64,000 bases of DNA from contig ONEB01000008.1 in NCBI GenBank assembly GCA_900316745.1, positions 24,019-88,018 on the forward strand. The letters are read 5' to 3'. The stretch is from an uncultured Eubacteriales bacterium. Lineage in GTDB: Bacteria > Bacillota > Clostridia > Oscillospirales > Oscillospiraceae. A model generated the notes under the pieces. It worked only from the letters and a program-made list of their open reading frames with translations, made no database searches and was not told where the DNA came from. Both the position numbers and the translations under genes were made by a program. Each line of letters opens with the position of its first letter. The first letter of the stretch is position 1. Below are positions 31,011-48,674 of this stretch, piece by piece.

Positions 31011-32597
31011 TTATCCGATCGCCTGCACCTTGTATACGAAGGCGACGGAGCTTTCGGTGTTCTCGGTGCGCTGGGTGAAGATGTCGTATTCCTCCCCGAA
31101 CGTGAGCCATTCGCGCATGCGCCCGGCGAGATTCTGCTGCTGCGCCTGCGTGAGCCCGTCGAGCGCGGAATATTTCGACGCCACGCCGAGGATTGTTTGC
31201 AGCCCGTTTGTGATGTTGGAGTCCTGCAGCACGGCGAGATCGTCAAACACCTCGCGGTTGGCCTCCAGCACCTGAATCACGCCGCGCAGCTGAGAGATGA
31301 TCTCCGGCAGACGCTCGATGGAGCTTTGCAGCGCGGGATCGGCCAGATCCGCTTTCAGCGCGTCGATCGTCGGCATCAGCGCGAGCGCGTCCTCCGTCAC
31401 GGTCACGAGATCGCGCGCCTCCTCGTCGATCAGGGAGATGAGATCGATGAGCTGCTGGAACAGGTTGCAGTCGATCAGCGCCTGCAGACGCTCGACGTCG
31501 ATGGCCTCCATGTCGGCGAGGAGCTTTTCCATCGCGGCGAGGTTTTCGTAGGTCACATAGCCGGAGAGCGTTTCGAGCAGAGCCTTGTTCTCGTCATACA
31601 AAAGCGCCGCCTGTGTCACCGCGCCCATGAGGTTCTGCACCTTATCCATGTCGCCGTAGAGCATCTGCACGAGCTCCTGCATGCGCATGCCCGAAAAGGC
31701 GTTCATCACGGTCTCCAGATCGGAGAAGATCTGCTTCACGCCGTCGAGCCCCTCGGAGAGGTCGCCGCTCGTGAAAGCGTCCACGGAGGAAAACGGCACC
31801 GCCGCAATCATCATGTTTCCCATGGCGAAGTTTTTGACGTCTGCCGAGATCGTGAAGCTGCCCGCGCCCATCTGCTCGCCCAGAAGCGGCAGACCGAGCG
31901 CCGAGATGCCGAGACTTTCCTCCATGCCCGGCACGCCCATCATCAGTACGATCCGGTGCGCGCCGTCGCCCAGCACCGCGCCGTTCGAGACTTCGACGTT
32001 CTCGAAGCCCTCCTCCGGCAGGAGCATCCCGCCGACGAGCAGCATCGGGCAGGTGAGATCATAGCTGACGCCGTTCACGGTCACGGGCTTTACAAGCGTG
32101 TTTTCCGCCTCCACGCGGATCGTGAGCCTGCCGCTCTTGCCAGCGAGTTGGTCCGGCGCAATGGGGACGCCGTTGATCATGTAGTCGATGTCAAACTGCA
32201 TCGGCGGCGTGCTGTCGGATCTGCCGCTGTAATAGAGATCCGTGCCGTCCATCTGCCAGAAGAGACGGCCATTGGAGCGCTCGGGTGTCTCGCCCGTTTT
32301 TACGTCGGTAATATCGCTCAAGTCGCTCGCGTCCTCGATGCGGACCTGCGGCAGCTCTGTGTGCAGGTGGTCGGAGACGTTCACCTGCTGCACCGCGCCG
32401 TCGGCGGCGAGATTCACATAGACGGTCTCGTGCTTCGTCACCGCGCAGTCGGAGGTCGTGGTGCTCTCCACCACGCGCGAATCATGCACATAGACCTCCT
32501 GCGCCTGCACCAGAACGGTCGCGGGACTGATGCTTACGAGCACCAGCGCCGCCATGAGCGCGACGGCCAGGATGCGGTTTCGGATTGTTTCAGGCAT
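31011..32597 (-). CDS. Exported helical protein partnered with the MMPL transporter
   Basis: 528 residues from the ATG at 32597 (GGAGG nine bases before), overlapping the MMPL stop by eight bases. A signal peptide (LAVALMAALVLVSISPATVL, cleaved near AQA) precedes a beta-rich N-terminal half (VHDSRVVESTTTSD; GKSGRLTIRVEAENTL) and a long alpha-helical C-terminal half (about 285-500) with heptad-like repeats. No transmembrane helix is seen at the C terminus. I do not recognise a named domain, but the arrangement resembles the YhgE/Pip-like or periplasmic-type helical partners found next to Gram-positive MMPL exporters. A role as an extracellular adaptor for that exporter is inferred from coupling only. 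Confidence 0.75.
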   Translation of the reverse strand: MPETIRNRILAVALMAALVLVSISPATVLVQAQEVYVHDSRVVESTTTSDCAVTKHETVYVNLAADGAVQQVNVSDHLHTELPQVRIEDASDLSDITDVKTGETPERSNGRLFWQMDGTDLYYSGRSDSTPPMQFDIDYMINGVPIAPDQLAGKSGRLTIRVEAENTLVKPVTVNGVSYDLTCPMLLVGGMLLPEEGFENVEVSNGAVLGDGAHRIVLMMGVPGMEESLGISALGLPLLGEQMGAGSFTISADVKNFAMGNMMIAAVPFSSVDAFTSGDLSEGLDGVKQIFSDLETVMNAFSGMRMQELVQMLYGDMDKVQNLMGAVTQAALLYDENKALLETLSGYVTYENLAAMEKLLADMEAIDVERLQALIDCNLFQQLIDLISLIDEEARDLVTVTEDALALMPTIDALKADLADPALQSSIERLPEIISQLRGVIQVLEANREVFDDLAVLQDSNITNGLQTILGVASKYSALDGLTQAQQQNLAGRMREWLTFGEEYDIFTQRTENTESSVAFVYKVQAIG

Positions 32598-34683
32598 TCG
32601 TCGCGACCTCCTTTCGCGCCCGCCAGTGTTTTGTGGTCTTGGATATGATGCCCTCGCTGAGACAAAGCAGCGGGGCGAGGAAGATGAGGATGACGATCTC
32701 GCTGATGATCGCGCCGCGGGCAAGCAGCGCGCACATGCCCTGCACGATGTGGATATCGCACACGAGCCAGACGCCGAACGTCGCGGCGAAGAACACCGCC
32801 GCGCTCTGAAATACGCTCTTCATCGTCGTGGCGGCGGCAACGCTGATTGCCTCCAGCTTGGTCGGGCGGAGCGAGAGCTCCTCCTGAAAGCGCGTCGTGA
32901 GCAGGATCGCGTAGTCCACCGTCGCGCCGAGCTGCACGCAGTTGACGACCGTGGGATCGACGAACGAAGCCACTCTGCCGAGCAGTGCCGAGATGCCGAG
33001 GTTCAGCCAGATCGCAAGCTCGATGGAGAGAACCAGGATCACCGGCAGGGAGATGGACTTGAACACGATCGCAATGAGAAGAAAGATCGCCGCGATGCTC
33101 GTCACCGCCGTCACGGCAAAATCGATGTCGGTGGTGTCGATGAGTCCCTGCGTCACCGCGCCCTCGCCCGTGATGAGGGCGTCGGGATCGACTCTGGAGA
33201 CGATCACCTCCATCTCATGGAGCTGCTCTGTCATCTCCGGCGTCGCGGGGCTGAATTCGGAATTGACCATCATCAGCTGCTTACCGTCCTGCTTGCACAG
33301 GGCGAGGATCTCGTCCGGCAGAATGTTCCCCGGAATCGCAGGGCCGACCACCTGGTTATACGCCAGCACGAGCGACACGCCTTTGAGCCTGGAGATGTCC
33401 CGCTCCATGTCCATGATGTCCTGCGCGGGCAGGGAGTCGTCAAAGATCACAAACTGCGTGCTCGCCATGTTGAAGTCTTCTTTCATCCGGTGCAGTCCCT
33501 CGATGCTGGGCAGATTGTCCGGCAGCGCGCGGTCCATGGCGTAGTATTTGTCGAGCCCCCGCTGCGTCAGATACGCCGGGACGAGCAGCGCGAGAAACAG
33601 GAGCGCCATCGCCCGGCGATGACGGGTCACAAACCGGCTCACGCCGGTAAAGTTCGGGATCAGGCTCCGGTGGCGGTAGCGGTGCAGGAGATCGTCTGTC
33701 AAAAGCAGAATCGCCGGCAGCACGAAGATGACCGTCAGCACGCCGAACACAACGCCCTTTGCCATCACAAAGCCGATATCAAAGCCGAGCTTCAGGCGCA
33801 TAAAGCACAGCGCCGCGAAGCCGAACACCGTCGTGAGCGAGCTGCCCGTGAGCGCGGTAAAGCTTTTCACGACCGCCGACGCCATTGCCTCCTCGCGGGA
33901 GGCGCGGTGCGGAAGCTCCTCGTGATAGCGGTCGATGAGGAAGATGGAATAGTCCATCGTCACGCCGAGCTGCAGCACTGCCGCGATGCACTGCGTGATA
34001 AAGGAGATCGAGCCCATGAAGAAGTTCGTGCCCATGTTGTAGAGCACCGCGATGCCCAGGGCCGCCAGAATCACGAGCGGCTGGATCCAGCTTTCCATCG
34101 TGAGCGCCATGACGAAAAGCGCCAGCGCCACCGCGATCGTGATGTAGATCGGCGCCTGATTGTCGGCAAGGGACTTTGTGTCCTCCACGATGGCGGACAG
34201 CCCACTCACGAATTCGTTCTCGCGCAGCAGAGCCTTGATGTCGTGCACGGCTTCCATCAGCTCGTCCGCCGTCGCCTCGGGGTCATACTGCACGAGCATC
34301 ATCGTGTCCGTGCCGTCGGCGCTGTAAAAGATATCCCGGATCATGTCGGGCAGAATGTCCGCCGGGATGGAGATGTCCGCAATGGAGTCGAGCCAGATCA
34401 CGGACTTGACGCCGTGCACCTCGGCGACGCGCGCCTTTAAGTCGGCTGCGTCCCGCGGCGCGCCGTCCTCCAGAATGACGACGGAGATGCCCGCCGTGTG
34501 GAACGTCTCGTCCAGCACGCGCTCGCCCTGCACCGAGGGCAGATCGTCCGGGAGATAGGAGAGAATGTCATAGTTCACGCGCGTCAGAAGAAAGCCGATC
34601 CCCGCCGGGATCAGAAGCAGCAGCGCGATGAGCAGCACCGTCTTCGGGTGCTTTGCTTCCCAAAGTGCGATTTTCCGCATCAT
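32590..34683 (-). CDS. MMPL/RND-superfamily exporter
   Basis: 697 residues from the first of two adjacent ATGs at 34683, with GGAGG eight bases upstream. Twelve helices in two halves, each with one helix, an external loop of about 150 residues and five more helices. The family TM4 motif occurs as LQLGVTMDYSIFLIDRYHEE in the first half and LGATVDYAILLTTRFQEE in the second, with the proton-relay DY pair in both. Such proteins export lipids, antibiotics or siderophores by proton motive force. It is transcribed from a promoter enclosed in a long dyad and is translationally coupled to the exported protein after it. Confidence 0.9.
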   Translation of the reverse strand: MMRKIALWEAKHPKTVLLIALLLLIPAGIGFLLTRVNYDILSYLPDDLPSVQGERVLDETFHTAGISVVILEDGAPRDAADLKARVAEVHGVKSVIWLDSIADISIPADILPDMIRDIFYSADGTDTMMLVQYDPEATADELMEAVHDIKALLRENEFVSGLSAIVEDTKSLADNQAPIYITIAVALALFVMALTMESWIQPLVILAALGIAVLYNMGTNFFMGSISFITQCIAAVLQLGVTMDYSIFLIDRYHEELPHRASREEAMASAVVKSFTALTGSSLTTVFGFAALCFMRLKLGFDIGFVMAKGVVFGVLTVIFVLPAILLLTDDLLHRYRHRSLIPNFTGVSRFVTRHRRAMALLFLALLVPAYLTQRGLDKYYAMDRALPDNLPSIEGLHRMKEDFNMASTQFVIFDDSLPAQDIMDMERDISRLKGVSLVLAYNQVVGPAIPGNILPDEILALCKQDGKQLMMVNSEFSPATPEMTEQLHEMEVIVSRVDPDALITGEGAVTQGLIDTTDIDFAVTAVTSIAAIFLLIAIVFKSISLPVILVLSIELAIWLNLGISALLGRVASFVDPTVVNCVQLGATVDYAILLTTRFQEELSLRPTKLEAISVAAATTMKSVFQSAAVFFAATFGVWLVCDIHIVQGMCALLARGAIISEIVILIFLAPLLCLSEGIISKTTKHWRARKEVATNA

Positions 34684-34735
34684 CCGCCGCGCCTCCTCTC
34701 TCCTGATCGCAGAATTACCGCCAAACGGACAAAGT

Positions 34736-34794
34736 CCGCCAGAACGGTGAACATATTGTAACATATATTTTTAATATGTCAACCATTCTGGCGG
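34736..34794. promoter_or_regulatory. Long operator-like dyad around the MMPL promoter
   Basis: ccgccagaacggtgaacata (continuing tt, 34736-34757) is the inverse, with 3 mismatches in 22, of 34773-34794. The dyad encloses the spacer, and the -35 and -10 boxes lie in its arms. This is the geometry of a repressor operator (TetR-like or MarR-like); no regulator gene is adjacent. Confidence 0.75.
34755..34782 (-). promoter_or_regulatory. Promoter of the MMPL operon
   Basis: Minus-strand consensus TTGACA (34777-34782) and TACAAT (34755-34760) with a 16-base spacer and an upstream TG (TGTTACAAT). Both boxes lie inside the dyad arms. Confidence 0.75.
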
Positions 34795-34846
34795 AATTTG
34801 TTGTTATGTTGTAACTATTTGGCGAAGCAGGTTTCGTTTTCCTGCG

Positions 34847-35350
34847 TTACCGGCAGTTCGTGCGCCGGATCTCGCCGCAGGCGATCTTGTCGCCGGGGTT
34901 GCCGGAGGGCTGGGACGTGAAATCATCCACATCGTCGTGGATGACCACGGTTTTTCCGATGATCTCCCGCACGGTGAAGCGGTCGGTCAGGAAGACCTGC
35001 GCGGCGGTGCCGTCGCTTGCAAACAGCGGCGGCATGTCTCCGGCGTGCGCGGGATGGGGGCAGCGCTCCGGATTGTAGTGCTCGCGCGCATTTGCAAAGG
35101 GATCCTCCCGGTTTCCGGTGCAGCGCTCGCCGCAGTGGATGTGAAACGCGAAAATGTCGCTGTCGCACCGCCGGTCCGAGGTGGGCAGCCCCGAGATCTC
35201 GGCGGCGACCAGCACGCCGCCCGCCGTCTGGTAAAAACGAACCAGACCCCGGATGCCGGGATAGTCATTGCTTCCGGACACGACGGCCTGCGCGTCGGGG
35301 CGGCGCTGGAGAACCTTGAGAAAGTGCATAAATCTTTGTGTTTCGGCCAT
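34847..35350 (-). CDS. Cu/Zn superoxide dismutase-like protein, cytoplasmic
   Basis: 167 residues from the ATG at 35350 behind GAAGGAG. The SodC pattern is complete: HxH copper ligands in FAFHIHCGERC, the zinc loop EHYNPERCPHPAHAGDMPPL, and IHDDVDDFTSQPSGNPGDKI then ACGEI near the end. Unlike most bacterial SodC proteins it has no signal peptide. Two cysteines flank the HxH site, and one is in the zinc loop, so the disulfide pattern differs from the classical one. Many Clostridia encode such cytosolic SodC-like proteins; catalytic activity is plausible but unproven. Confidence 0.85.
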   Translation of the reverse strand: MAETQRFMHFLKVLQRRPDAQAVVSGSNDYPGIRGLVRFYQTAGGVLVAAEISGLPTSDRRCDSDIFAFHIHCGERCTGNREDPFANAREHYNPERCPHPAHAGDMPPLFASDGTAAQVFLTDRFTVREIIGKTVVIHDDVDDFTSQPSGNPGDKIACGEIRRTNCR

Positions 35351-35404
35351 AAAACCAACTCCTTCAAACCAGCCTATGCATCCGGGAGCAGGCGCGTTCC
35401 GTGA

Positions 35405-35438
35405 CAAAAAAAGACCTCCTGCGGCAGCGCGCAGGAGG
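35405..35438 (-). terminator. Terminator of the YitT gene
   Basis: cctcctgcg and cgcaggagg pair and are followed on the minus strand by TCTTTTTTTG, just after the YitT stop and upstream of the SodC-like gene. Confidence 0.85.
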
Positions 35439-35454
35439 AACGGATCGTTATGCG

Positions 35455-36351
35455 TTATCCTTTTTTACTCGGTGCCGAGATCTCGTTGCGCGCGACGGTG
35501 AAGCCGCGGCCGCGCACCTCGTTGATCTGTGTGATCGTGATAAAGGCCATGGGGTCAATGTCCTGAATGCGGTGGGTGGCATTGTAGAGCTTGCGCTGCG
35601 GGATCACGCACAGAACGCCTTTCTGCTCTCGCTCAAGCCGCCCGGTCTCGATCATCGTCATGGTGACGCCGGCCTCGATCTCGTTTAAGAGCATCCTGCG
35701 GATCTCCTCGTACTGCTCCGAGACCACAAAGATCTGGATCTGCGCCTTGCCGAGGATCATGGCCTTGTCCAGGATGATGGTTTCCAGCACAAGCACGAGA
35801 ATGCCGAGCAGAATCTGCTCCGAGGACGAGAACAGCGCCTGTCCGCCGACGATTACGATATCGCCGAGATATACGAACAGTGCCACCGGCAGGTGGAGCC
35901 AGTGCGCCATGACGAGATTCAGAATGTCCATGCCGCCGGTCGAGGAGCCGACGCGCATCACAAGCCCCAGCGCCACGCCCATCAGCACGCCCGCGAAAAT
36001 CGCCGCGAGCACGGGATCGGCCGTGAGCGATTCGATGCCCGGAATGCGTTGGAAAAAGCCCAGCATCACGGGGTAGAGCACCGAGCTTGCCACCGTCGTG
36101 AGAAAGAATTTCTTTCCCAGCACGACAAGCCCCAGCACCAGGAGCAGCAGGTTCAGGATCAGGATCAGCAGCGATACGTCCAGCCCCGGGATCAGCCTGT
36201 TCAGCACGATGCCGATACCGGTCGTGCCGCCCATGATGATGTCGTGCGGGATGATGAACGCCGCCACGAGAAAAGCGAGCAGGGCGTTGCCCGCCAGCAT
36301 GCAGAGCGTCGTCACAAGAATCTTTTTCGGTTTTTTGTCGTAGGGCTTCAT
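35455..36351 (-). CDS. YitT family membrane protein
   Basis: 298 residues. Five to six helices make up a DUF161 region: AFIIPHDIIMGGTTGIGIVL, GVLMGVALGLVMRVGSSTGG and MDILNLVMAHWLHLPVALFV are family signatures. A C-terminal DUF2179 domain (about residues 215-280: EIEAGVTMTMIETGRLEREQ, LCVIPQRKLYNATHRIQDID) is a cytoplasmic ligand-sensing-like fold. Function is unknown in the family. It is separated from the lipid operon by 67 bases and likely has its own promoter; the terminator at 35405-35438 follows. Confidence 0.9.
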   Translation of the reverse strand: MKPYDKKPKKILVTTLCMLAGNALLAFLVAAFIIPHDIIMGGTTGIGIVLNRLIPGLDVSLLILILNLLLLVLGLVVLGKKFFLTTVASSVLYPVMLGFFQRIPGIESLTADPVLAAIFAGVLMGVALGLVMRVGSSTGGMDILNLVMAHWLHLPVALFVYLGDIVIVGGQALFSSSEQILLGILVLVLETIILDKAMILGKAQIQIFVVSEQYEEIRRMLLNEIEAGVTMTMIETGRLEREQKGVLCVIPQRKLYNATHRIQDIDPMAFITITQINEVRGRGFTVARNEISAPSKKG

Positions 36352-36418: not shown

Positions 36419-37489
36419 TCAGGTCAGATCGCGTGCCATGAGGACGTAATCGGTCTGACCCGTTTTCAGAATGCGGTAGAAGCCTCCGGTCACTTTGCCG
36501 TCGTGGATGAGAGCGGTGACGCTCGTGCAGTTTTTGCGCTGAAGATCGTGCTTCAAGAGCTCCGAGAGCGCGTTGCCGAGCCCCGCGTGCTTCGGCGAGA
36601 CGCCCATATAGGGGATGGCGTACTCCGTCGGCGCGCGGCGGATCGCGAGAATCTCGGCGGCGGTGTGCGGCGTGATGCGCCCCGCCGTGCGTGTGCCGTA
36701 GTTCGGAACGCAGATCACGAATGCCGCGAGCGCGCCGTCTTTATAAACGAGCTTGACCATCTCGTGGTCGAGCACATAGCGCAGCGGAGAAAACAGCGCG
36801 ACGAACTGCCGCTCCGTGATGTACTGAAAGCCGGGAAACGCGCTGTAAAGCTCGATGAGCAGGGAGTAAATGTCGCGCAGACTTTCATCGAATGTGCGGA
36901 ACGTGATCGTGCGGAAGTCATATCCCGCCTCGCGGAACGCTTTGAGCCGCCGCACGGCTTTTTCACTCACGTCGGCGTCCGTCGGCACGCGCATGTGGTT
37001 GGAAAAGTAATGATCCGTCACGGCAAAGCCGCACTGCTCCCACAGCCGGGGATAGTAGGCGAGGTTATTCGGCTCGCCGGTGAAGTAGTCCCGAAAGCCC
37101 GACGTCTTGAACCGGTAGCCCAGCCAGAACGAGGCGTTGTAGGGGCCCACGAGACGGCTGCGGCCGAAGAGCTTTGCCTTTTCTGCCGCCGCGGTGAGCA
37201 CGAGCGCCGCCGCGTCAGGAGCGTCCTCGCTCTCGAAGAAGCCGACGTAGCCGTTTTCGTCGCCGGGGTAGAGCGTCAGCAGGCACCGTGCGGCGGGCTG
37301 GTCGTTTTCGTCCAGCGCCAGAAACGGGTACACGGCAAAGTCCACGCTCAGCGGGTGTGTGCCGAGCAAAATCTGCTGTTCGGTTTTCCTGTCCTGCGTG
37401 CGGCGCTCCGGGGGATAGAGTCCCTCCGGCAGCGCGAGAAAGGCGCGGCGCAGGAAGAAGTCATTTTCGGAGTACAGTGTATAGCGCAT
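36419..37489 (-). CDS. GNAT-fold protein at the end of the lipid operon
   Basis: 356 residues. I prefer the ATG at 37489, nine bases after AGGA and one base after the dikinase stop; an ATG at 37498 is also in frame. An N-terminal acetyltransferase-like half (ARCLLTLYPGDENGYVGFFE, AKLFGRSRLVGPYNASFWLG) precedes a C-terminal half with a GNAT motif A-like segment (YMGVSPKHAGLGNALSELL) and VTGGFYRILKTGQTDYVLM. It resembles FemX/tandem GNAT proteins that may be N-acyltransferases. Acyl or aminoacyl transfer to a lipid head group would fit the operon, but this is inference. Confidence 0.7.
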   Translation of the reverse strand: MRYTLYSENDFFLRRAFLALPEGLYPPERRTQDRKTEQQILLGTHPLSVDFAVYPFLALDENDQPAARCLLTLYPGDENGYVGFFESEDAPDAAALVLTAAAEKAKLFGRSRLVGPYNASFWLGYRFKTSGFRDYFTGEPNNLAYYPRLWEQCGFAVTDHYFSNHMRVPTDADVSEKAVRRLKAFREAGYDFRTITFRTFDESLRDIYSLLIELYSAFPGFQYITERQFVALFSPLRYVLDHEMVKLVYKDGALAAFVICVPNYGTRTAGRITPHTAAEILAIRRAPTEYAIPYMGVSPKHAGLGNALSELLKHDLQRKNCTSVTALIHDGKVTGGFYRILKTGQTDYVLMARDLT

Positions 37490-37490
37490 G

Positions 37491-39698
37491 TCAATCATTC
37501 CTGTTCAAGATTCGGATCGTGCCCGCCGTGCTGTCGAGCTCCACGAGATCGCCGGTGCGGATGCGCTTGCAGGCGTCGTGCACGTTCACCATCGAGGGCT
37601 TTTGCAGCTCGCGCGTGATGATGGCGGTGTGGCTCAACAGCGATCCCTTTTCCGCGATGATGCCTGCGGCGTTTTCAATGAGGAACACCCAGCCGGGGTC
37701 GGTGCTGCGCGTGACGAGAATCTTGCCGCGCGTGTCGATTGACAGGTCCGGGTTCGTTATGACCAGTGCCTCGCCCGTGACCCTGCCGAGCGCGGCGGAG
37801 ACACCCGTGAGCGTGTCGCCCCGGTGCAGCAGGTCGAACGACGCGTTGAGCACGCGCTTGTTCCGGATCGCCCCGTCAAAGACGAGCCGGCTGTATGCGG
37901 GGAGATCTGCGTACATCCTGAACTCCGCCTTGCGCTGCGCGACGGTCTCGCGCAGATCGCCGGCTCCGAGCGCTTCCAGCTCCGGTACGGAGATGTAAAA
38001 CACATCCTCCGGATCATCGATGCGCCCGTCGCGGCAGAGCTCCTCGCCGACGGCGCGGAAGATCGCGCGGATCGTGCCGAAAATGCGCGTGCGGTCCATG
38101 CGCGAGCGCTCGCGGTTGTAAATGCCTGTTTTTGCGCGGCGCACAAAGAACGGCTCGCGGCTTTTCGCCGGCGGCGCCTCCTGCTGCGGCAGCTGCGTCG
38201 GCGCGTCCAGGCGGGCGCGGACAAAGTCGTCCACGAGCCCGGGGTGCGTGCGGTAGGTGTGCGTCTCCAGCTTCAGCTCGCCGAGACAGCGGTCGCCGTA
38301 CTGGCGGATGAAGTCGGCTTTCGCGGCGCGGTAGGCGTCTGTGTCCATGCCGTGCTGCTTTGCGGTGTCCACAAGAGCGAGCATGCGCTGCACGGGCTTC
38401 ATGCTCTCAAGGTTGCGGATGTCTGCGAGCGCGGCCTTGTTTCGCTTTCCCGCGAGATAGGTGAAGAGGAATGCGTACATGTCGTTGATGAGCGTGACGT
38501 GCCAGCGCGCGAGGATATCGTCGAGCATGCTGTGGTAAATGTCGAGCAGCTGCGGCGTTTTCGCGTGTGCCTCGTCCGCGAGCACGGCGCTGAGACGGCG
38601 GTCGAGATCGGCGGCGTAGCGCTCATAAAAAACGCAGAGCGCGTCCATGCGCTTCGGCGTCTGGAGCACGCAGCGAAGAAGCTCAAAGCCGAGCGTGGCT
38701 TTCACGCACAGCGGCACGCGCCGCTCCGTCGCGGTCACGGTCGGGTTCTCCACGCCGAGCATCTGCTGCCAGATGCGGATGAACCAGCCGGAAAACGGCA
38801 TCAGCCGCAGCACGCCGTACCAGCTCGAAATGCGGTAGTAGACCCTGCCGTTTGCCATGTCCACCATGTCGCGGATCTCGTGGTCGAGCGCGTCCACGAT
38901 GGGGCTTTCATGCGTGACCTCCAGCAGCAGGGATTTAAAAATGCGGTAGTAGATCTCTTTGACGAAACTCTGCGAGAGCGGCAGCGTCAGATCGGGATAG
39001 CTCTCCACGATGTTGGAGTTGTCGAGCACGATCGTCTCGCCGCCGGGGAGCGTCGTGATGGGGCGCGCCTGCAAGAGCCACACATCGCCGCCCTGCACGG
39101 CGTACTCCACGTCCGTCGGCGCTCCAAACAGGCGCTCGACCGCGATGCCAAGATCCAATAGCCTTTGGAGCGTCTCAGACTCCAGCAGCGGCGATTCGCC
39201 CGCGCGCTCGTAGTAGTAGACCGCGTCGTCCTTGTTGTAATAATAGGTGGTTGTGTCCGCGCGATCCTCCACAACGGCGTTTCCGAGCCCGGCACCGACG
39301 ACGATGACCATCTCGTTCAGCTGTCCGGTCGGGTTTGCCGTGAAGAGCACGCCGGCGCAGTCGGCGTCCACCATCTCCTGCACGAGTACGGGAGCGTCCG
39401 CGTCGCTTTCGCGCTCCGGCAGACCGTGCGCTTTGGCGTAGGCGGCGTAGCCTTTGGCGTAGCTTTCGCGCACGCGCCGGATCGCCTCCGGCACATCTTT
39501 GCGCGGCACGTTCAAAAGCGTCTCAAACTGCCCGGCAAAGGAGAGCGCGGCATTGTCCTCCACATCGAAAGTCGAGCGCACGGCGAAGCGCTCCGCCTCG
39601 GAAAAATCCGGACGGAGCGGTGTATCCTTCGTCACAACGGTGAACGCCGGCACGGGCAGACCGTGCGCGCGCATGCGCTGTAAATTTTCTGCTTTCAT
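37491..39698 (-). CDS. PEP-synthase-like dikinase with C-terminal swivelling His domain
   Basis: 735 residues. An ATP-grasp/PPDK_N domain covers about 1-215 (RFAVRSTFDVEDNAALSFAG, LVQEMVDADCAGVLFTANPT, WLLQARPITTL). A helical middle region of about 400 residues has no recognisable family. A His domain ends the protein at about 640-735, with the phosphorylatable histidine in GSLLSHTAIITRELQKP. The PEP/pyruvate TIM-barrel of PpsA is missing. The order ATP-domain, unknown domain, His-domain is that of rifampin phosphotransferase, in which the middle domain binds the acceptor. The acceptor here is unknown; the operon suggests a lipid or prenol. It follows the UbiA gene after three bases. Confidence 0.85.
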   Translation of the reverse strand: MKAENLQRMRAHGLPVPAFTVVTKDTPLRPDFSEAERFAVRSTFDVEDNAALSFAGQFETLLNVPRKDVPEAIRRVRESYAKGYAAYAKAHGLPERESDADAPVLVQEMVDADCAGVLFTANPTGQLNEMVIVVGAGLGNAVVEDRADTTTYYYNKDDAVYYYERAGESPLLESETLQRLLDLGIAVERLFGAPTDVEYAVQGGDVWLLQARPITTLPGGETIVLDNSNIVESYPDLTLPLSQSFVKEIYYRIFKSLLLEVTHESPIVDALDHEIRDMVDMANGRVYYRISSWYGVLRLMPFSGWFIRIWQQMLGVENPTVTATERRVPLCVKATLGFELLRCVLQTPKRMDALCVFYERYAADLDRRLSAVLADEAHAKTPQLLDIYHSMLDDILARWHVTLINDMYAFLFTYLAGKRNKAALADIRNLESMKPVQRMLALVDTAKQHGMDTDAYRAAKADFIRQYGDRCLGELKLETHTYRTHPGLVDDFVRARLDAPTQLPQQEAPPAKSREPFFVRRAKTGIYNRERSRMDRTRIFGTIRAIFRAVGEELCRDGRIDDPEDVFYISVPELEALGAGDLRETVAQRKAEFRMYADLPAYSRLVFDGAIRNKRVLNASFDLLHRGDTLTGVSAALGRVTGEALVITNPDLSIDTRGKILVTRSTDPGWVFLIENAAGIIAEKGSLLSHTAIITRELQKPSMVNVHDACKRIRTGDLVELDSTAGTIRILNRND

Positions 39699-39701
39699 CA
39701 G

Positions 39702-40601
39702 TTAAATCTTTCCCACAAGAAGGTAGATCACGACAGTCGCGATCATCGTCAGCTCCTGGATGTAGGTGTAGTGCTCCACCTTGGTCACGAGCTTGAAGCG
39801 CGTGGGGTCCTGCTTGAAGCGCTGGAACGTCCAGCACATCCAGCCGACGAGGCAGGCGAGCACCGCCACGCTGATCTTGTTGAGATTCCAGACCAGCACG
39901 AAGTTCGTCATGATATCGAGCAGCACCACGAACATGGCAAAGTTCGTCGCCTTCTTGTAGCCGAAGAGCTTGGAATAGGTGACGTACTCCGTCTCGTCCT
40001 GCGGGGCGCGGATCTTGCGCGAGACCTCCCAGTAGAGCGCGGGGAAGTAGAGCGTGAAGCACGCGAAGACGTTGATGAGATCGACTGCCTTGATGTCATA
40101 CTTGATGACCGTGAACGAGATGATGTAGATGTTCATGATGAACTGCACGGGGTTGTGCGTCACGAGCGCGAGCGGCAGGGACTTCTGGATCTTGTACTTC
40201 TGGAAGAACCAGATTGCCATCAGCGAGCCGTAGGTGTACAGGATGACGCAGAACAGGAAGTTATTCATGAAGATGGCGTTGAGCGCAAGCGTCACCGGGA
40301 TCAGGATGCACAGGAAGATCTTCAGATCCTTTTTCGTCACGCGCCCAGAGGGCAGCGGACGGTGCGCGAACAGCCTGCAGTCGAGCTCATAATCCTTGAA
40401 GTCATCCGCGATGCGCAGCCAGCACAGGAAGCTGAACACGGTAAAGCCGAGGATCAGCTCCTGAATGCCGAGATGGAAGTGCGTCACGCCGTGGTTGAGC
40501 AGGACGATGAAATAGATCTCGCCCGCGATCAGATAACCCAGTCCGAGACGCGGCAGGATGGGGTACATCTCCTTGAAGTAGATATTCAATCGTTTGAGCA
40601 T
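39702..40601 (-). CDS. UbiA-superfamily prenyltransferase
   Basis: 299 residues with about nine helices. The first Asp-rich site is in LRIADDFKDYELDCRLFAHR, followed by PLPSGRVTKKDLK; the second region is YWEVSRKIRAPQDETEYVTY-type, with SKLFGYKKAT, both in UbiA positions. The family transfers a polyprenyl group from a diphosphate to an acceptor in the membrane (quinone rings, heme, or geranylgeranylglyceryl phosphate in archaeal lipids). No quinone pathway genes are near. Being directly beside CarS-like and PssA-like genes, it is a candidate for prenylating a glycerophosphate-type acceptor (inference). Confidence 0.85.
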   Translation of the reverse strand: MLKRLNIYFKEMYPILPRLGLGYLIAGEIYFIVLLNHGVTHFHLGIQELILGFTVFSFLCWLRIADDFKDYELDCRLFAHRPLPSGRVTKKDLKIFLCILIPVTLALNAIFMNNFLFCVILYTYGSLMAIWFFQKYKIQKSLPLALVTHNPVQFIMNIYIISFTVIKYDIKAVDLINVFACFTLYFPALYWEVSRKIRAPQDETEYVTYSKLFGYKKATNFAMFVVLLDIMTNFVLVWNLNKISVAVLACLVGWMCWTFQRFKQDPTRFKLVTKVEHYTYIQELTMIATVVIYLLVGKI

Positions 40602-40620
40602 GATGATTCTCCTAAGATAA

Positions 40621-41217
40621 TCAGAATATCAGCAGCACCGCACCGGAGCCGAGACCCAGCAGCGTGCAGATGATTGCCCCCGTGCTGCCGGGCTTCTTCA
40701 CGCGGATGCTTGCCACAAAGAGCACCGACATCACGAGCATCAAAACCGCCGCGGCGACCGTCACGCCGGAGAAGCCGGTGATCGCGGCAACGGCGTACAA
40801 AAACGGCAGAAACAGCGCCATGCACGTCACGGGAACGCCGCTGAAATACTTCGTGTTGCCGTCGGTCGTGATGTCAAACCAGCACAGGCGCGTCACGCCC
40901 GCAAAGACATAGACGATCGCAAGCAGCACCGTCCAGACCGTGCGCGCCTGCGCGAGCAGGAACACCGCCGGGAAGATCACGAACGAGACCGTGTCGGCAA
41001 AGGAATCGAGCTGGATGCCGAACTGCTTCTCCACGTCTGTGCGCGGGAACATGCGCGCCACGCGCCCGTCAAAGAGGTCGCAGATGCCGCTTATGAGCAG
41101 CATCAGCATGGCGAGCTTTGGGTTATCGGCAAAGCAGATGCCGACCACCGCCGCCGCGATACCTAGAAAGGTCACGCAGTTGGCGAGATTGTATACGCCG
41201 ATAAAATAACGTTTCAT
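40621..41217 (-). CDS. CDP-alcohol phosphatidyltransferase (PssA-like)
   Basis: 198 residues from the ATG at 41217 with GGAGA six bases before. Six helices and the full CDP-alcohol motif DG(x)2AR(x)nG(x)3D(x)3D: DGRVARMF, then GIQLDSFAD. The VSFVIFPAVF continuation is typical of phosphatidylserine/archaetidylserine synthases. The enzyme swaps CMP of a CDP-activated lipid for an alcohol such as serine in the membrane. The neighbouring CarS-like protein would supply the CDP-lipid; the acceptor alcohol cannot be read from the sequence. It lies 12 bases after the CarS-like gene. Confidence 0.92.
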   Translation of the reverse strand: MKRYFIGVYNLANCVTFLGIAAAVVGICFADNPKLAMLMLLISGICDLFDGRVARMFPRTDVEKQFGIQLDSFADTVSFVIFPAVFLLAQARTVWTVLLAIVYVFAGVTRLCWFDITTDGNTKYFSGVPVTCMALFLPFLYAVAAITGFSGVTVAAAVLMLVMSVLFVASIRVKKPGSTGAIICTLLGLGSGAVLLIF

Positions 41218-41229
41218 ACTGATCTCCAA

Positions 41230-41826
41230 TCACAGATTTTTACGAATATGCAGCTTGTAAAGGACGAAGTTCACGCCCACATGCGTGCCCGCGCCGAGGC
41301 AGATATACTGCACATAGCGCTTCCACGAAATGCCGGAATACGCCGAGAGCACCGCAAACACGCCCAGCAGCGAGTCGATCTGGTCGATGACGAAAAACAC
41401 CTTGCCCGCAGCGCCGCTCTCGGTCTTGCCGGGGCGAATGTCGATGCGGCGCTTTACAAAGCTGTTCGGCAGCTCGCACACGGCGTAGGCAAGCCCGCAG
41501 AGCGTGCCGGAGACGAGATTCAGCGCGAGGGTGTTTTCCCGCACGCGGTAAATGTCGTGCAGGGCGTTTAAGCCCCGGCGCGCGCAGTGGCTGCCCCAGA
41601 CGACCTGTGACGCTGCCGTGAGCGCGACCATCGATGTAAAGCCGATCCACGTCTTGTTGTCGCCGAGGATGCGCTTGCCGTCGCGCCATACCCGCCCGCC
41701 GTCCATCGGCGCGCGATGGTTTTTGTAGAGCGGGGTCTTGGTGAAGATCATGTTCGACACGCCGCCCAGAATCACGGGCATCGCCGTGATATACATGTTC
41801 CGGATTACTTCAGCAGGGCGTGACAT
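41230..41826 (-). CDS. CDP-archaeol synthase (CarS/DUF46)-like protein
   Basis: 198 residues from the ATG at 41826, which lies inside the end of the DgkA-type gene (22-base overlap). About five helices. The segment APMDGGRVWRDGKRILGDNK, then TWIGF, is the DUF46/CarS signature (DGG..f.DG.r.lGdnKTwrG). CarS activates unsaturated archaeal ether lipid phosphate with CTP to CDP-archaeol; bacterial relatives exist but are little studied. The Lys-rich C terminus is short. Its place between a lipid kinase and a CDP-alcohol phosphatidyltransferase fits the order phosphorylate, activate with CTP, attach head group. Confidence 0.88.
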   Translation of the reverse strand: MSRPAEVIRNMYITAMPVILGGVSNMIFTKTPLYKNHRAPMDGGRVWRDGKRILGDNKTWIGFTSMVALTAASQVVWGSHCARRGLNALHDIYRVRENTLALNLVSGTLCGLAYAVCELPNSFVKRRIDIRPGKTESGAAGKVFFVIDQIDSLLGVFAVLSAYSGISWKRYVQYICLGAGTHVGVNFVLYKLHIRKNL

Positions 41827-42176
41827 ATATAGATCCCCTCCATGATGAAGAATGCGCCGCCCCACATCCAGACGCCCGCAGCGCCGAGATCCTTGATGAT
41901 CTTGACCTCGGGATGCAGTTCCGGCGTGTAGAGATCCATGATGTGCTCGATGGCGGTGTTGATCATCTCGGAAGAGAACACGCCGCCGAGACAGACGATG
42001 AACACCACGTGCTGCAGCATCGTCACATGGCACAGGCAGTTGATGATGAAAAACGAGGTACAGATGCCCATGTAGGTGAGAAAGTTCTTCTCGGTCTTAA
42101 AGCCGTAGACCGAGCCGACGAGCGCAAAGTAGACGCTCTGGAAAAAGCCCTTGCTTTTGGGAGGCCTGTTGTCCAT
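41805..42176 (-). CDS. DgkA-type diacylglycerol/undecaprenol kinase
   Basis: 123 residues, the size of Gram-positive DgkA/UdpK. Three helices; the active-site region FSSEMINTAIEHIMDLYTPE followed by KIIKDLGAAGVW matches the family (E..NTAIE...D.......iKD.aA..V). The enzyme phosphorylates a membrane lipid alcohol such as undecaprenol or diacylglycerol. It starts three bases after the antiporter stop and overlaps the CarS-like gene, so it is part of the lipid operon and could supply the phosphorylated lipid for CTP activation (inference). Confidence 0.93.
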   Translation of the reverse strand: MDNRPPKSKGFFQSVYFALVGSVYGFKTEKNFLTYMGICTSFFIINCLCHVTMLQHVVFIVCLGGVFSSEMINTAIEHIMDLYTPELHPEVKIIKDLGAAGVWMWGGAFFIMEGIYICHALLK

Positions 42177-42179
42177 GGC

Positions 42180-43451
42180 TCAGTCCGCCTCTCCTTTCCG
42201 CAGACGCGTGAAGATGGTGCTGTCCTTTTTCTGCTGATTGCGCAGCCAGTAGCCCGCGATCAGGGAGGAGAGCATGGTCGTGAGAATCAGCACGGTGAAA
42301 AACTCGATGCTGATGATCTTGTAGGAATAGGCCACCGTGGCGAGCACGATGCCGGGGCCGCCGCGCGCGTTCATGGTGATGGCAAAGTTGATCTTCGCGC
42401 TCTTGCGCAGATCGGTCAGCTGCAGCATGATGAGCGTGCCGACGCCCTCCAGCCCGAAGGCGATCACAAAGAAGACGAGAAAGCGCACAAGCGAGAAGTT
42501 GTGCAGCAGATTCAGCTGGATGCCGACGAGGGCAAAGTAGATCGGGATGAAGAACGAGAACGCGAAGTTTCCGAGCGACTCCATCGCGTTTTTGATGCGC
42601 TCGTCCACGCCCGCCACGGCTTTTACAACATAGCCCACGAGAAACGCGGCGTACATGATGTTAATGCCGACGGTGTAGAGCCCCGCGCATACCAGCAGCA
42701 GCACGACGAAGCTCACGGAGTAGAACGTGATCGGCTTTAAGTGCCGCTCGCGCGCCTTCGTGTGGTCGGAGATGACCTTTACCACGGCGAAAAGCCCCAG
42801 CGTGATGACGACGACGCCGATCATGTCCGCGAGACGCAGCTCGCCCTGTGAGGCGATGCGTGTCGCGGCGTTCAGGAGGATCCACAGCAGCAGATCCTGG
42901 AAGGTCGAGACTGTGAGAACCGTGTTGGAAAAGCGCGTGTTCATGATGCCCATGTCGAAGAAGATCTTCGAGATGACGGGGATGGACGTGATGGCAACGC
43001 CGATCGTGAACACGAGCCCGAATGAGATCTCGTTTCCCATCTCGCCGATAAAGGCGTCCTTGAACATGCCGATGAACGGCAGCGCGCCCAGCATCGGCAG
43101 CACCGTCGCGCCGAAGAAGACGCACCAGATTACGCGCCCGTTCGAGCGGTCAAGCTCCAGCCGCGTGTTGTAGCCGGAGAGGAACATCAGAAAGATCAGT
43201 CCCAGCTGATAAAAGATGTTCAGCACCTTGCCCTCCTCGGGGTAGGCGAGGAACACGCTTCCCATCACGTCGGGGAAGAAATGATACAGCAGCGTGCCGC
43301 CCAGCACAAGGCCGCCGAGGATCTCGCCCACCACGCGGGGCGCCTTGATGCGCTCCATCAGCGAGCCGAGCAGAAACGCGCTTCCCAATAAAAGAGCCAG
43401 AGCAATGAGGGTCGCGATGATCTCATGCTCTGACAGTGTCGGCAAAGTCAT
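42180..43451 (-). CDS. Kef/CPA2-type cation:proton antiporter
   Basis: 423 residues with about twelve helices and no cytoplasmic RCK domain. APRVVGEILGGLVLGGTLLY, FLMFLSGYNTRLELDRS, VFTIGVAITSIPVISKIFFD and TMNARGGPGIVLATVAYSYK are CPA2 signatures, including the substituted Asp/Asn position in the fourth/fifth helices and the NARGG.G segment. It exchanges Na+ or K+ for H+ across the cytoplasmic membrane. It is the first gene of the operon that continues into the lipid genes; the link between ion exchange and the lipid pathway is not clear and could be simply shared stress control. Confidence 0.88.
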   Translation of the reverse strand: MTLPTLSEHEIIATLIALALLLGSAFLLGSLMERIKAPRVVGEILGGLVLGGTLLYHFFPDVMGSVFLAYPEEGKVLNIFYQLGLIFLMFLSGYNTRLELDRSNGRVIWCVFFGATVLPMLGALPFIGMFKDAFIGEMGNEISFGLVFTIGVAITSIPVISKIFFDMGIMNTRFSNTVLTVSTFQDLLLWILLNAATRIASQGELRLADMIGVVVITLGLFAVVKVISDHTKARERHLKPITFYSVSFVVLLLVCAGLYTVGINIMYAAFLVGYVVKAVAGVDERIKNAMESLGNFAFSFFIPIYFALVGIQLNLLHNFSLVRFLVFFVIAFGLEGVGTLIMLQLTDLRKSAKINFAITMNARGGPGIVLATVAYSYKIISIEFFTVLILTTMLSSLIAGYWLRNQQKKDSTIFTRLRKGEAD

Positions 43452-47217: not shown

Positions 47218-48363
47218 TTATGCGTTTTTTGCCCGATTCTCCCAGGCGATCCTGCCGTTTACGATCGTATAGCGGACGGATGAGGCGATCTGGAGCGGAT
47301 CACCGTCCCAGATCGCGAGATCCGCATCTTTCCCGATCGCGAGACTCCCGAGGCGGTGATCGACCCGGCAGATGCGCGCTGCCTCGAGCGTGATGGCACG
47401 CAGCGCCGCAAATTTGTCCATGCCCTCCTTAGCGGCCAGCGCCGCGCAAAGCGGCAGGTACTGAATCCGGGATACCGGGTGATCCGTCGTCAGCGCGACC
47501 GGCACGCCGGCTTTTTGCAGGATCCCGGCTGTCTTGAAATCCGAACGACTGACCTCGTCCTTCGTTCGCGAGGCAAGCGACGGCCCGACGATGGCCGGGA
47601 ATCCGCTCTCTGCGATTTCCTCCGCGATCAGATGTCCCTCCGTGCAGTGATCGAGCGTCAGAGCGAGCCCGAATTCCCTGGCGATGCGCATGGCGGTAAA
47701 AATGTCGTCCGTCCGGTGCACATGCGCCTTCAGAGGTATTTTGCCCTCAAACAGCTCCCGATAACACTCCATATTGAAATCCGGCTCGCTGCAGTCTCCG
47801 TCGAAGTACTGTCTTGCGAGGAACAGCTCCTCCCGGATCAGCGACGCAATGCCCATGCGGGTCGAGGGAATGTTGCCGTTCGGCCCGTAATTCGTCATCG
47901 GATTTTCGCCGAAAGCCACTTTCACTGCCGCGGGCGCCAAGACGATCATGTCATCCACGCGCCTGCCGTCGGTTTTGATGAATGCGAACTGCCCGCCGAT
48001 CGGATTGGAGCTTCCCGGCCCCGCCATGACGCCGGTGACGCCTGCCGCCAGCGCGTTGTGAAAGGCGCTGTCCATGGGGTTGACGGCGTCGATCGCCCGC
48101 AGGCATGGCGTGATCGGATTCGTCCCCTCGTTGCTTTCGTCCACCGGATCGGTCGTCTTTTCCTCGGCGATTCCGATGTGGCTGTGCGCGTCAATGAAGC
48201 CGGGGTATACGCACAGACCGCGCGCGTTCAGGAGCTGCATGTTCTCCGTCGGCGTTATGGCGTCCGCGATCTCGGCGATTTTTCCCGCGTCGATCAGCAG
48301 GTCAGCGCGGATGGGCTGCTCCTGCTCCATGGTGTACAGCATCGCGTTTTGAATCAACAGCAT
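47218..48363 (-). CDS. Amidohydrolase of the imidazolonepropionase-like group
   Basis: 381 residues from the ATG at 48363 (MLLIQNAMLYTMEQEQPIRA, a typical start). An open frame continues upstream for 105 codons through Ser/Gly-repeat sequence but that is the antisense of a small gene. The TIM-barrel metal ligands are visible: HxH in GFIDAHSHIG, then AHVHR, LTLDHCTEGH and the Asp in ALTTDHPVSR. The beta-sandwich end GKDADLAIWDGDPL is standard. It hydrolyses an unknown cyclic amide or related bond; the group includes imidazolonepropionase and dipeptidase-like enzymes. It follows no operon partner; the four-helix gene starts 28 bases after its stop and may be co-transcribed. Confidence 0.87.
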   Translation of the reverse strand: MLLIQNAMLYTMEQEQPIRADLLIDAGKIAEIADAITPTENMQLLNARGLCVYPGFIDAHSHIGIAEEKTTDPVDESNEGTNPITPCLRAIDAVNPMDSAFHNALAAGVTGVMAGPGSSNPIGGQFAFIKTDGRRVDDMIVLAPAAVKVAFGENPMTNYGPNGNIPSTRMGIASLIREELFLARQYFDGDCSEPDFNMECYRELFEGKIPLKAHVHRTDDIFTAMRIAREFGLALTLDHCTEGHLIAEEIAESGFPAIVGPSLASRTKDEVSRSDFKTAGILQKAGVPVALTTDHPVSRIQYLPLCAALAAKEGMDKFAALRAITLEAARICRVDHRLGSLAIGKDADLAIWDGDPLQIASSVRYTIVNGRIAWENRAKNA

Positions 48364-48458
48364 TTGGCGTTGTGTCCTTTCCGTAAAATTTTGGAGCTCA
48401 TAATACTCGCCCGTTCTGCAAAAAATGATCTTGTCATCAAAAAAAGGGGGTGAACCAA

Positions 48459-48599
48459 ATGAGCAACAACCAGAACAACCAGAACCAGCAGAACCGTCAG
48501 AATCAGCAGAACCAGCAGAACCGCGAGAATCAGCAGAACCGCCAGAACCAGCAGAACCGCCAGAATCAGCAGAATCGCGAGAACCAGCAGAATCGATAA
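48459..48599 (+). CDS. 46-residue Asn/Gln/Arg-rich mini-protein
   Basis: A small gene with a strong ribosome site (AGGGGGTG six bases before ATG) and TAA at 48597-48599. The protein is built only of N, Q, R, E plus the first MS: MSNNQNNQNQQNRQNQQNQQ is followed by (N)RENQQNRQNQQNR-type repeats of period about six to eight residues. It has no hydrophobic residue after Met1. The synonymous variation (AAC/AAT, CGT/CGC/CGA) suggests selection for the protein rather than a simple DNA repeat. It is too short for most gene callers. Function unknown; a spore- or stress-related intrinsically disordered protein is a guess. Confidence 0.72.
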   Translation: MSNNQNNQNQQNRQNQQNQQNRENQQNRQNQQNRQNQQNRENQQNR

Positions 48600-48639
48600 C
48601 CGTTTTCAGTGTTCCCCGATTTTGATAGGAATAAACACC

Positions 48640-48669
48640 GTGCCCCACCGGAGCGTTCCGGTGGGGCAC
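48640..48669. terminator. Hairpin between the mini-protein gene and the FAD/Rieske gene
   Basis: gtgccccaccgg and ccggtggggcac form a perfect 12-base stem with an agcgtt loop between convergent genes. T runs are short (GTGTTTATT on the minus strand). Confidence 0.7.
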
Positions 48670-48674
48670 ATCCG

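What the first reader, a model, noticed from the sequence alone, without database searches (positions are those of the whole stretch)
36419..43451. Candidate undescribed isoprenoid/ether-lipid operon in a bacterium
Seven genes run without gaps larger than about 20 bases and with several overlaps: antiporter, DgkA-type lipid kinase, CarS-like CDP-archaeol synthase, PssA-like CDP-alcohol phosphatidyltransferase, UbiA prenyltransferase, a dikinase with a C-terminal His domain, and a GNAT-like protein. In archaea UbiA (DGGGP synthase), CarS and archaetidylserine synthase catalyse consecutive steps of phospholipid synthesis. Here they sit together with a lipid kinase and a phosphoryl donor enzyme. 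I infer a pathway that makes or modifies a prenylated phospholipid or polyprenol-linked head group. The ordinary bacterial CdsA is not part of the cluster, so CarS may provide the CDP step.
Basis: partly seen in the sequence, partly recalled or inferred. Interest (0 to 1): 0.78.

Follow-up and report, generated by a model that had tools for sequence, protein, structure and literature searches.

The report
Unusual lipid-building operon in gut bacteria
A block of seven closely packed genes in a gut bacterium, largely kept together in dozens of rumen and gut relatives, looks like a pathway for a membrane lipid that has not been identified, built from an isoprenoid-attaching enzyme plus head-group enzymes that resemble those of archaea.

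Summary
In detail: seven minus-strand genes (36419-43451) with gaps of at most 19 bases. The cassette is real and recurrent: in 80 loci read of 168 relatives found, its genes lie on one strand in 80 of 80; fullest order DgkA-CarS-PssA-Psd-UbiA-dikinase-(acyl ligase)-GNAT. It is patchy: UbiA in 2 of 197 genomes of the order, cassette-type CarS in exactly the same two. CdsA is present in 12 of 12 genomes, so CarS is extra. The archaeal ether-lipid reading is not supported: no GGGP synthase in 12 genomes (three short matches; the two read are TrpA-like), one trans-prenyl synthase each (farnesyl-type signature in 5 of 6 inspected), and motif 3 of DGGGP synthase is replaced by ExxRKxxA. In six loci DgkA is missing and a second dikinase lies beside CarS, suggesting that the dikinases are lipid kinases. 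The core (UbiA, dikinase, GNAT, acyl ligase) recurs on one alphaproteobacterial plasmid with a BtaA-family head-group enzyme instead. Best reading: a core builds a prenyl- and acyl-bearing lipid alcohol; interchangeable modules add the head (phosphoserine/phosphoethanolamine here). The product is unknown. The antiporter is peripheral; Psd lies elsewhere in this genome.

The parts
42180..43451 (-). CPA2-type cation:proton antiporter; first gene of the run; peripheral, found in 5 of 80 related loci
   Evidence: PF00999 129.6 bits
41805..42176 (-). DgkA-family lipid kinase (the only DAGK_prokar match in this genome; a YegS-type lipid kinase lies elsewhere)
   Evidence: PF01219 77.8 bits; single match in G000; EMINTAIE seen in the translation; YegS-type kinase
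41230..41826 (-). CarS-like CTP:lipid-phosphate cytidylyltransferase
   Evidence: PF01864 48.3 bits, cut-off 22; NF003114 CDP-archaeol synthase 66.7 bits, cut-off 148
40621..41217 (-). PssA-like CDP-alcohol phosphatidyltransferase (ATG at 41217; TTG at 41229 also possible)
   Evidence: PF01066 47.9 bits; best NCBIfam models archaetidylserine synthase 82.3 and pssA 73.7 bits; DGRVAR...G...D...D seen (motif recalled)
39702..40601 (-). UbiA-superfamily prenyltransferase, near the PRK13592 model; variant motif 3 (ExxRKxxA...YS)
   Evidence: PF01040 37.5 bits; NF010118 405 bits; model pLDDT 85.6 nearest to DGGGP synthase 6m31; only UbiA match of the genome
37491..39698 (-). Dikinase (Dik1): ATP-binding domain, middle domain, C-terminal His domain with His690; no PEP barrel
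   Evidence: PF01326 and PF00391; PDB 5fbs/5hv2 E about 2e-78, named PEP synthase there, rifampin phosphotransferases from recall; invariant H690, NIxESYP, GDR..LKLE
36419..37498 (-). Tandem GNAT-fold acyltransferase-like protein
   Evidence: pLDDT 94.6; Foldseek best tandem GNAT 2wpw and glucosamine acetyltransferase 5kf1, E 2.6e-12 and 3.5e-11

Best explanation
A lipid-biosynthesis cassette with two modules. Core: UbiA, the dikinase Dik1 and the tandem GNAT (with an AMP-forming ligase in some relatives) build a lipid alcohol carrying an isoprenoid chain (UbiA; in this genome likely from farnesyl or another short or cis-polyprenyl donor, not geranylgeranyl) and an acyl chain (GNAT); Dik1 supplies a phosphorylated intermediate to this step. 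Head module: DgkA phosphorylates the lipid alcohol, CarS turns the lipid phosphate into a CDP-lipid, PssA exchanges CMP for serine, and Psd (elsewhere in this genome) may decarboxylate it to the ethanolamine lipid. Shown: gene content, order, co-occurrence, domain identities, kept catalytic motifs, absence of GGGP synthase matches. Inferred: the order of reactions, that CarS acts on the core's product rather than on ordinary phosphatidate, the acyl and prenyl content, and the backbone. Not known: the chemical structure.
For: One strand in 80 of 80 loci. UbiA in 2 of 197 genomes of the order and cassette-type CarS (over 280 bits) in exactly those two (five further hits at 19-31 bits are frames of CdsA length). 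In the family of isolate NK4A144 (Lachnospiraceae by record title) CarS in 16 of 397 genomes, UbiA in the same locus in 15 of 16. DgkA and CarS both present in 65 and both absent in 15 of 80 loci, never one alone. CdsA family in 12 of 12 genomes. In 6 of 8 newly fetched CarS loci a second dikinase of 837-863 residues lies beside CarS and no DgkA is found in the locus (Pfam run on 3 of the 6). G000 has a separate YegS-type lipid kinase, so DgkA is not needed for diacylglycerol recycling. UbiA-dikinase pairs in other phyla: S. clavuligerus plasmid and Roseinatronobacter plasmid; in the latter a GNAT (66 bits; best shuffle 1.4) and an AMP-binding ligase follow, and the head enzyme is DUF3419, the BtaA family, which acts on diacylglycerol (passages of PMC6642084 and PMC10685587). 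UbiA fold nearest to DGGGP synthase, TM 0.65/0.68.
Against: One CarS-PssA locus (L154) has no UbiA within about 9 kb; the rest of that genome was not searched. 15 of 80 UbiA loci show no DgkA/CarS (L011 and L066 are cut just upstream of UbiA, L085 and L058 have only about 2 and 5 kb there), and two such genomes have no match to either family, so the head module is dispensable. Psd is single-copy in 11 of 12 genomes and the cassette PssA looks like the only PS synthase in the three genomes checked, so both may serve ordinary PE synthesis. The second dikinase lies on the other side of CarS from where DgkA lies, and in L152 CarS is on the opposite strand; DgkA elsewhere in those genomes was not excluded. 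The BtaA link rests on one plasmid. No substrate has been measured. The mirror-tree correlations (0.72-0.92) have no unlinked-gene control.
Confidence: 0.5

Rival explanations
1. Two unrelated jobs share an operon: DgkA, CarS, PssA and Psd are simply the cell's phosphatidylethanolamine and diacylglycerol-recycling genes, while UbiA, dikinase and GNAT make some other prenylated compound.
For: Psd is a single copy in 11 of 12 genomes; the other CDP-alcohol transferases read in three genomes are ClsA/PgsA-like, so the cassette PssA may be the housekeeping one; L154 has CarS-PssA without UbiA nearby; G597 and G598 have UbiA without DgkA or CarS.
Against: CdsA is present in 12 of 12 and G000 has a YegS-type lipid kinase, so CarS and DgkA would be redundant; cassette-type CarS coincides with UbiA (2 of 2 in the order sample, 15 of 16 in the Lachnospiraceae sample); CarS is followed directly by UbiA in 24 loci, with PssA-Psd elsewhere, e.g. 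in G592.
Confidence: 0.22
2. An archaeal-type ether-lipid pathway: GGGP to DGGGP (UbiA), CDP-archaeol (CarS), archaetidylserine (PssA), archaetidylethanolamine (Psd).
For: PDB profile and fold of UbiA, and NCBIfam models of CarS and PssA, point to archaeal enzymes.
Against: No GGGP synthase; one trans-prenyl synthase per genome, farnesyl-type signature in 5 of 6 read (rule recalled; R. flavefaciens is the exception); motif 3 lost; a kinase would be superfluous if UbiA made a lipid phosphate. G1P dehydrogenase and geranylgeranyl reductase not searched.
Confidence: 0.06
3. UbiA prenylates an aromatic acid to a quinone-like or other redox lipid, the dikinase and GNAT tailor it, and the phospholipid genes are neighbours.
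For: Most UbiA enzymes prenylate aromatics (general knowledge); NCBIfam scores of UbiA against chlorophyll synthase and DGGGP synthase are nearly equal; the ligases tested (3 of 21 loci) score with MenE as well as FadD models.
Against: PDB profile and fold prefer DGGGP synthase over UBIAD1 and A. fulgidus UbiA; BtaA and DgkA/CarS partners point to a lipid alcohol.
Confidence: 0.1
4. A polyprenol carrier system: DgkA is undecaprenol kinase and the cassette makes an undecaprenyl-linked head group or recycles the carrier.
For: DgkA of Gram-positive bacteria is often an undecaprenol kinase (recalled); it is the only DAGK_prokar match in 9 of the 10 genomes that have one.
Against: Two cassette genomes show no DgkA; CarS, PssA and Psd belong to CDP-lipid and serine-lipid chemistry; beyond cassette genes no gene cluster occurs in more than 16 of 80 loci apart from the ligase (most of these clusters were not identified; a UDP-galactopyranose mutase cluster occurs in 6).
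Confidence: 0.1

Closest known systems
Archaeal phospholipid pathway (DGGGP synthase, CarS, archaetidylserine synthase, Asd)
   Same: Same enzyme superfamilies for prenyl transfer, CDP activation, serine transfer and decarboxylation; PDB fold match of UbiA and best NCBIfam models of CarS and PssA
   Different: No GGGP synthase found; extra lipid kinase, dikinase, GNAT and ligase; UbiA motif 3 replaced; scores far under the curated cut-offs
Archaeal-lipid genes in FCB-group bacteria (PMC7852524; passages read)
   Same: Bacterial genomes carrying a UbiA protein related to DGGGP synthase
   Different: Those MAGs have GGGP plus DGGGP synthase and lack CarS; here CarS is present and GGGP synthase is not
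Rifampin phosphotransferase / PEP synthase family
   Same: ATP-binding and mobile His domain
   Different: Middle-domain motifs (NIxESYP, GDR..LKLE) kept with distant UbiA-linked homologues; partner UbiA
PRK13592 (NF010118) prenyltransferase
   Same: UbiA scores 405 bits, E 1.5e-121
   Different: Just under its cut-off of 443; the model names no function beyond prenyltransferase
BtaA betaine-lipid enzymes
   Same: A DUF3419 member stands among the core genes of the Roseinatronobacter operon
   Different: Not in this operon; no DUF3419 search of the Bacillota loci was made

Membership tests
DGGGP synthase | Motif 1 (N62, D66, D70 of MjDGGGPS; PMC9385802 passage) | tested here: inconclusive
   Both Asp kept (D70, D74); Asn replaced by Asp66
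DGGGP synthase | Motif 3 Asp residues (D180, D183, D187) | tested here: not met
   Aligned stretch reads E192xxR195K196xxA199, also in two distant UbiA proteins; alignment of fragments, gappy
DGGGP synthase | Curated model score (NF009522, cut-off 353) | tested here: not met
   20.1 bits
DGGGP synthase | Fold | tested here: met
   6m31 is the first Foldseek match, E 6.5e-5, TM 0.65/0.68
Archaeal ether-lipid pathway | GGGP synthase (PcrB family) in the genome | tested here: not met
   0 matches in G000; 3 short matches in 12 genomes, two read and TrpA-like
Archaeal ether-lipid pathway | GGPP synthase | tested here: inconclusive
   One polyprenyl synthase per genome; aromatic at -5 in 5 of 6 read, Ser in R. 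flavefaciens; rule recalled
Archaeal ether-lipid pathway | G1P dehydrogenase and geranylgeranyl reductase | not tested
CDP-archaeol synthase (CarS) | PF01864 above cut-off | tested here: met
   48.3 against 22 bits
CDP-archaeol synthase (CarS) | NF003114 equivalog cut-off | tested here: not met
   66.7 against 148 bits
CDP-archaeol synthase (CarS) | Preference for isoprenoid over fatty-acyl substrate | not testable with these tools
   Needs enzyme assay
PEP synthase | C-terminal PEP-binding barrel | tested here: not met
   Protein ends at the His domain; only PPDK_N and PEP-utilizers found
Rifampin phosphotransferase | Curated model score (NF041857, cut-off 999) | tested here: not met
   171.2 bits, though the domain order is alike
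CDP-DAG:serine phosphatidyltransferase | TIGR00473 cut-off | tested here: not met
   73.7 against 107 bits; archaetidylserine synthase 82.3 against 240

The most novel reading that the evidence does not exclude
A previously undescribed class of hybrid bacterial membrane lipids carrying both an isoprenoid and a fatty-acyl chain. The dikinase charges a free isoprenoid alcohol (made or scavenged, e.g. phytol in herbivore guts) to a monophosphate, and this UbiA subfamily, with Arg/Lys where others have the second Asp motif, uses that monophosphate as prenyl donor. The UbiA-dikinase core spans Bacillota, Actinomycetota and Alphaproteobacteria and is fitted with interchangeable phospho- or betaine-head modules.
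Probability: 0.12. Interest if true: 0.92.

Novelty: new variant of a known kind. Interest (0 to 1): 0.72.

Why it matters
Gut and rumen anaerobes, some of them cultured, would make a membrane lipid that has not been identified, using archaeal-looking CDP and prenyl steps in ordinary bacteria. That bears on the lipid divide and on host-microbe lipid chemistry, and it proposes a role (lipid phosphorylation) for dikinases annotated only as phosphoenolpyruvate synthase. The cassette is compact and can be tested in a laboratory strain.

Tried and rejected
Archaeal G1P pathway: rejected for lack of GGGP synthase and for the UbiA motif. CarS as a CdsA replacement: rejected, CdsA family in 12 of 12. 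Quinone UbiA: disfavoured by fold and PDB profile, not by NCBIfam scores, which are nearly equal. Mobile element: UbiA of the window matches 16 Streptomyces plasmid records at 24% (the 15 rows shown are S. clavuligerus, 1 not listed), CarS none, UbiA no phage record, no confirmed relative in viral contigs; base composition is like the surroundings. GNAT as a ceramide-synthase relative was a recalled idea; two literature searches gave only listings, none opened. The large membrane protein of the Roseinatronobacter operon (P0011) resembles CTP-dependent prenol kinases only from memory; Pfam, PDB and comparison with CarS gave nothing firm. Seven of my ten PMC searches bear on the cassette and their listings show no paper on it; subscription papers and preprints are not covered.
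Full report
OBSERVATION. The seven genes are present on the minus strand at the stated place. Gaps in transcription order are 3, -22, 12, 19, 3 and -8 bases, then 67 to a YitT gene. Pfam gives Na_H_Exchanger, DAGK_prokar, CarS-like, CDP-OH_P_transf, UbiA, and PPDK_N with PEP-utilizers; the last gene has only a sub-threshold GNAT hit. Its model (pLDDT 94.6) best matches tandem GNATs, 2wpw and 5kf1, TM about 0.55. The UbiA is the only UbiA-family match in the genome, which is 92.5% complete.

IS IT A UNIT? UbiA is rare: 2 of 197 genomes of the order, the own genome and G159; in a phylum sample of 398, apart from the own genome, only three weak matches of at most 22.7 bits. A scan of genome contigs with UbiA found 168 relatives; the best 80 were kept and read (L009-L088). 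By their titles they come from Lachnospiraceae, Ruminococcaceae and similar Clostridia, many from rumen or gut, including Roseburia inulinivorans, Oribacterium, Ruminococcus flavefaciens and Lachnoanaerobaculum. L086 is the same contig as L007 (G159). In these 80 loci the cassette genes that passed the length limits lie on one strand (80 of 80). UbiA>dikinase are successive cassette genes in 69, DgkA>CarS in 63, CarS>PssA in 40, PssA>Psd in 40, Psd>UbiA in 41 and CarS>UbiA in 24. Gene clustering finds the dikinase in 80, GNAT in 73, CarS in 65 and an AMP-forming ligase in 21; the antiporter is in 5. In Lachnoanaerobaculum (e.g. L071) the order is permuted (Dik-GNAT-DgkA-CarS-PssA-Psd-UbiA) but the genes stay together. 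Distance matrices correlate at 0.72-0.92, without an unlinked control.

THE HEAD MODULE FOLLOWS UbiA. Cassette-type CarS occurs in exactly the two genomes of the order sample that have UbiA (302 and 280 bits); the other five matches score 19-31 bits in frames of CdsA length, 278-302 residues, and were not read. In a sample of 397 genomes of the family of NK4A144, 16 have CarS (at most 8 candidates were scored per genome). The exception, L154, holds CarS-PssA alone. UbiA was not counted in that sample. DgkA and CarS are both present in 65 and both absent in 15 of the 80 loci; of the 15, L011 and L066 are cut just upstream of UbiA, and L085 and L058 show only about 2 and 5 kb there. All 12 genomes examined have a CdsA-family match, so CarS is an addition. 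Ten of the 12 have CarS and the same ten have DgkA. Psd is single in 11 of 12, in the cassette or elsewhere; G000 keeps its Psd on another contig and G598 shows none. The CDP-alcohol transferase family has 1-4 matches per genome; one further member each in G000, G159 and G589 was read and is ClsA/PgsA-like, so the cassette PssA looks like the PS synthase there; the rest were not read. G000 also has a YegS-type lipid kinase beside one of its two CdsA genes.

KINASE EXCHANGE. In six of the eight newly fetched loci (L150-L153, L156, L157) DgkA is missing and a second dikinase of 837-863 residues, 22-28% identical to the first, lies beside CarS; Pfam on three of the six shows both domains. It lies on the other side of CarS from where DgkA lies elsewhere, in L152 CarS is on the opposite strand, and DgkA elsewhere in those genomes was not searched. 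A kinase of one family present where the usual lipid kinase is absent suggests that these dikinases phosphorylate lipid alcohols. This is inference, not an assay.

THE CORE CROSSES PHYLA. A distant UbiA on Streptomyces clavuligerus plasmids (24% identity; profile comparison E 1.1e-7, probability 94) overlaps a dikinase gene. On a plasmid of the alphaproteobacterium Roseinatronobacter sp. S2 the run is UbiA, dikinase, DUF3419, a large membrane protein, a GNAT-like protein and an AMP-binding ligase. Scores against the cassette profiles are dikinase 461, GNAT 66 and UbiA 36 bits; the best of 900 shuffled sequences reached 4.4 for UbiA and 1.4 for GNAT; no dikinase shuffle was run. DUF3419 is the BtaA family (passage of PMC6642084); BtaA puts a homoserine head on diacylglycerol (passage of PMC10685587). 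A head-group enzyme that needs a free lipid hydroxyl, among the same core genes that in Bacillota go with DgkA-CarS-PssA-Psd, is the main reason to think that the core makes a lipid alcohol. It rests on one record. The S. clavuligerus locus has AfsA and isoprenylcysteine-methyltransferase-like genes instead and no annotated GNAT; a Streptomyces durmitorensis homologue of the dikinase has no annotated UbiA beside it.

WHAT UbiA IS NOT. Its only sequence match in the PDB at E up to 1 is DGGGP synthase (E 2.3e-4, motif 1 only), also the first fold match (TM 0.65/0.68; A. fulgidus UbiA 0.54, UBIAD1 0.58). NCBIfam does not separate DGGGP synthase (20.1 bits) from chlorophyll synthase (19.8). The motif 3 aspartates named in PMC9385802 (passages) are replaced by ExxRKxxA, kept in the Roseinatronobacter and Streptomyces proteins. 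24 of 117 residues invariant in 41 cassette UbiA proteins, and 64 of 87 in the dikinase, are kept in both distant homologues. GGGP synthase: no match in G000; three short matches in 12 genomes, two just over the cut-off with neighbours counted, and these two are TrpA-like (name recalled from the sequence). Each of 12 genomes has one trans-polyprenyl synthase; five of six read have the aromatic residue at -5 of farnesyl synthases, R. flavefaciens has Ser (rule recalled). An archaeal diether pathway is therefore unlikely, and the donor in this genome is more likely farnesyl diphosphate, undecaprenyl diphosphate or a scavenged prenol.

MECHANISM. Proposed: a fatty acid is activated (ligase, where present) and transferred by GNAT; Dik1 phosphorylates a precursor; UbiA adds the prenyl chain; DgkA or Dik2 phosphorylates the resulting lipid alcohol; CarS makes the CDP-lipid; PssA adds serine; Psd decarboxylates. 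Backbone, acyl length, prenyl length and linkage are unknown.

NOVELTY. Each enzyme family is known; the combination, the UbiA variant and the UbiA-dikinase pairing were not seen in the listings of seven PMC searches that bear on them. I file it as a new variant of a known kind (phospholipid biosynthesis).

Noticed in passing
L040:7222-8970: PssA and Psd appear fused in one 582-residue frame in a Ruminococcaceae MAG (UBA7135), consistent with consecutive steps.
   Followed up: partly
L047:10908-13026: In the Roseburia inulinivorans DSM 16841 draft the dikinase is in three pieces (draft error or decay); L040 and L157 show two pieces. This matters when choosing a strain to test.
   Followed up: no
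L168:4932-6251: Large membrane protein between DUF3419 and the GNAT in Roseinatronobacter; no firm Pfam or PDB match, reminiscent (from memory) of CTP-dependent prenol kinases.
   Followed up: partly
L167 and L169: Streptomyces plasmid clusters AfsA - isoprenylcysteine methyltransferase-like - dikinase (with UbiA in S. clavuligerus, without annotated UbiA in S. durmitorensis).
   Followed up: no
phage collection, H111-H114: Four unannotated records labelled Listeria phage carry a dikinase-like stretch (28% identity to the window dikinase).
   Followed up: no
L154:9290-10503: CarS-PssA pair with no UbiA within about 9 kb: the one exception to CarS-UbiA linkage among 16 genomes.
   Followed up: partly
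L172:994-3280 (own genome, contig C26): A CdsA, a YegS-type lipid kinase and a ClsA/PgsA-like enzyme lie in a row; the genome has a second CdsA-family match on C14.
   Followed up: partly
window 47218-52490 (-): Amidohydrolase, Rieske/FAD oxidoreductase and FMN oxidoreductase genes in a run around a tRNA-Arg (50232-50308).
   Followed up: no
window 7092-8864 (+): Polysaccharide deacetylase with S-layer homology domains.
   Followed up: no
window 59084-60832 (-): Protein made of two uncharacterised Pfam domains, DUF6937 and DUF6938.
   Followed up: no
window 32590-36351 (-): MMPL-family transporter and YitT protein downstream on the same strand (67-base gap to YitT); left out of the cassette. 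Recurrence was not searched; L009 and L012 show other ORFs after GNAT.
   Followed up: partly
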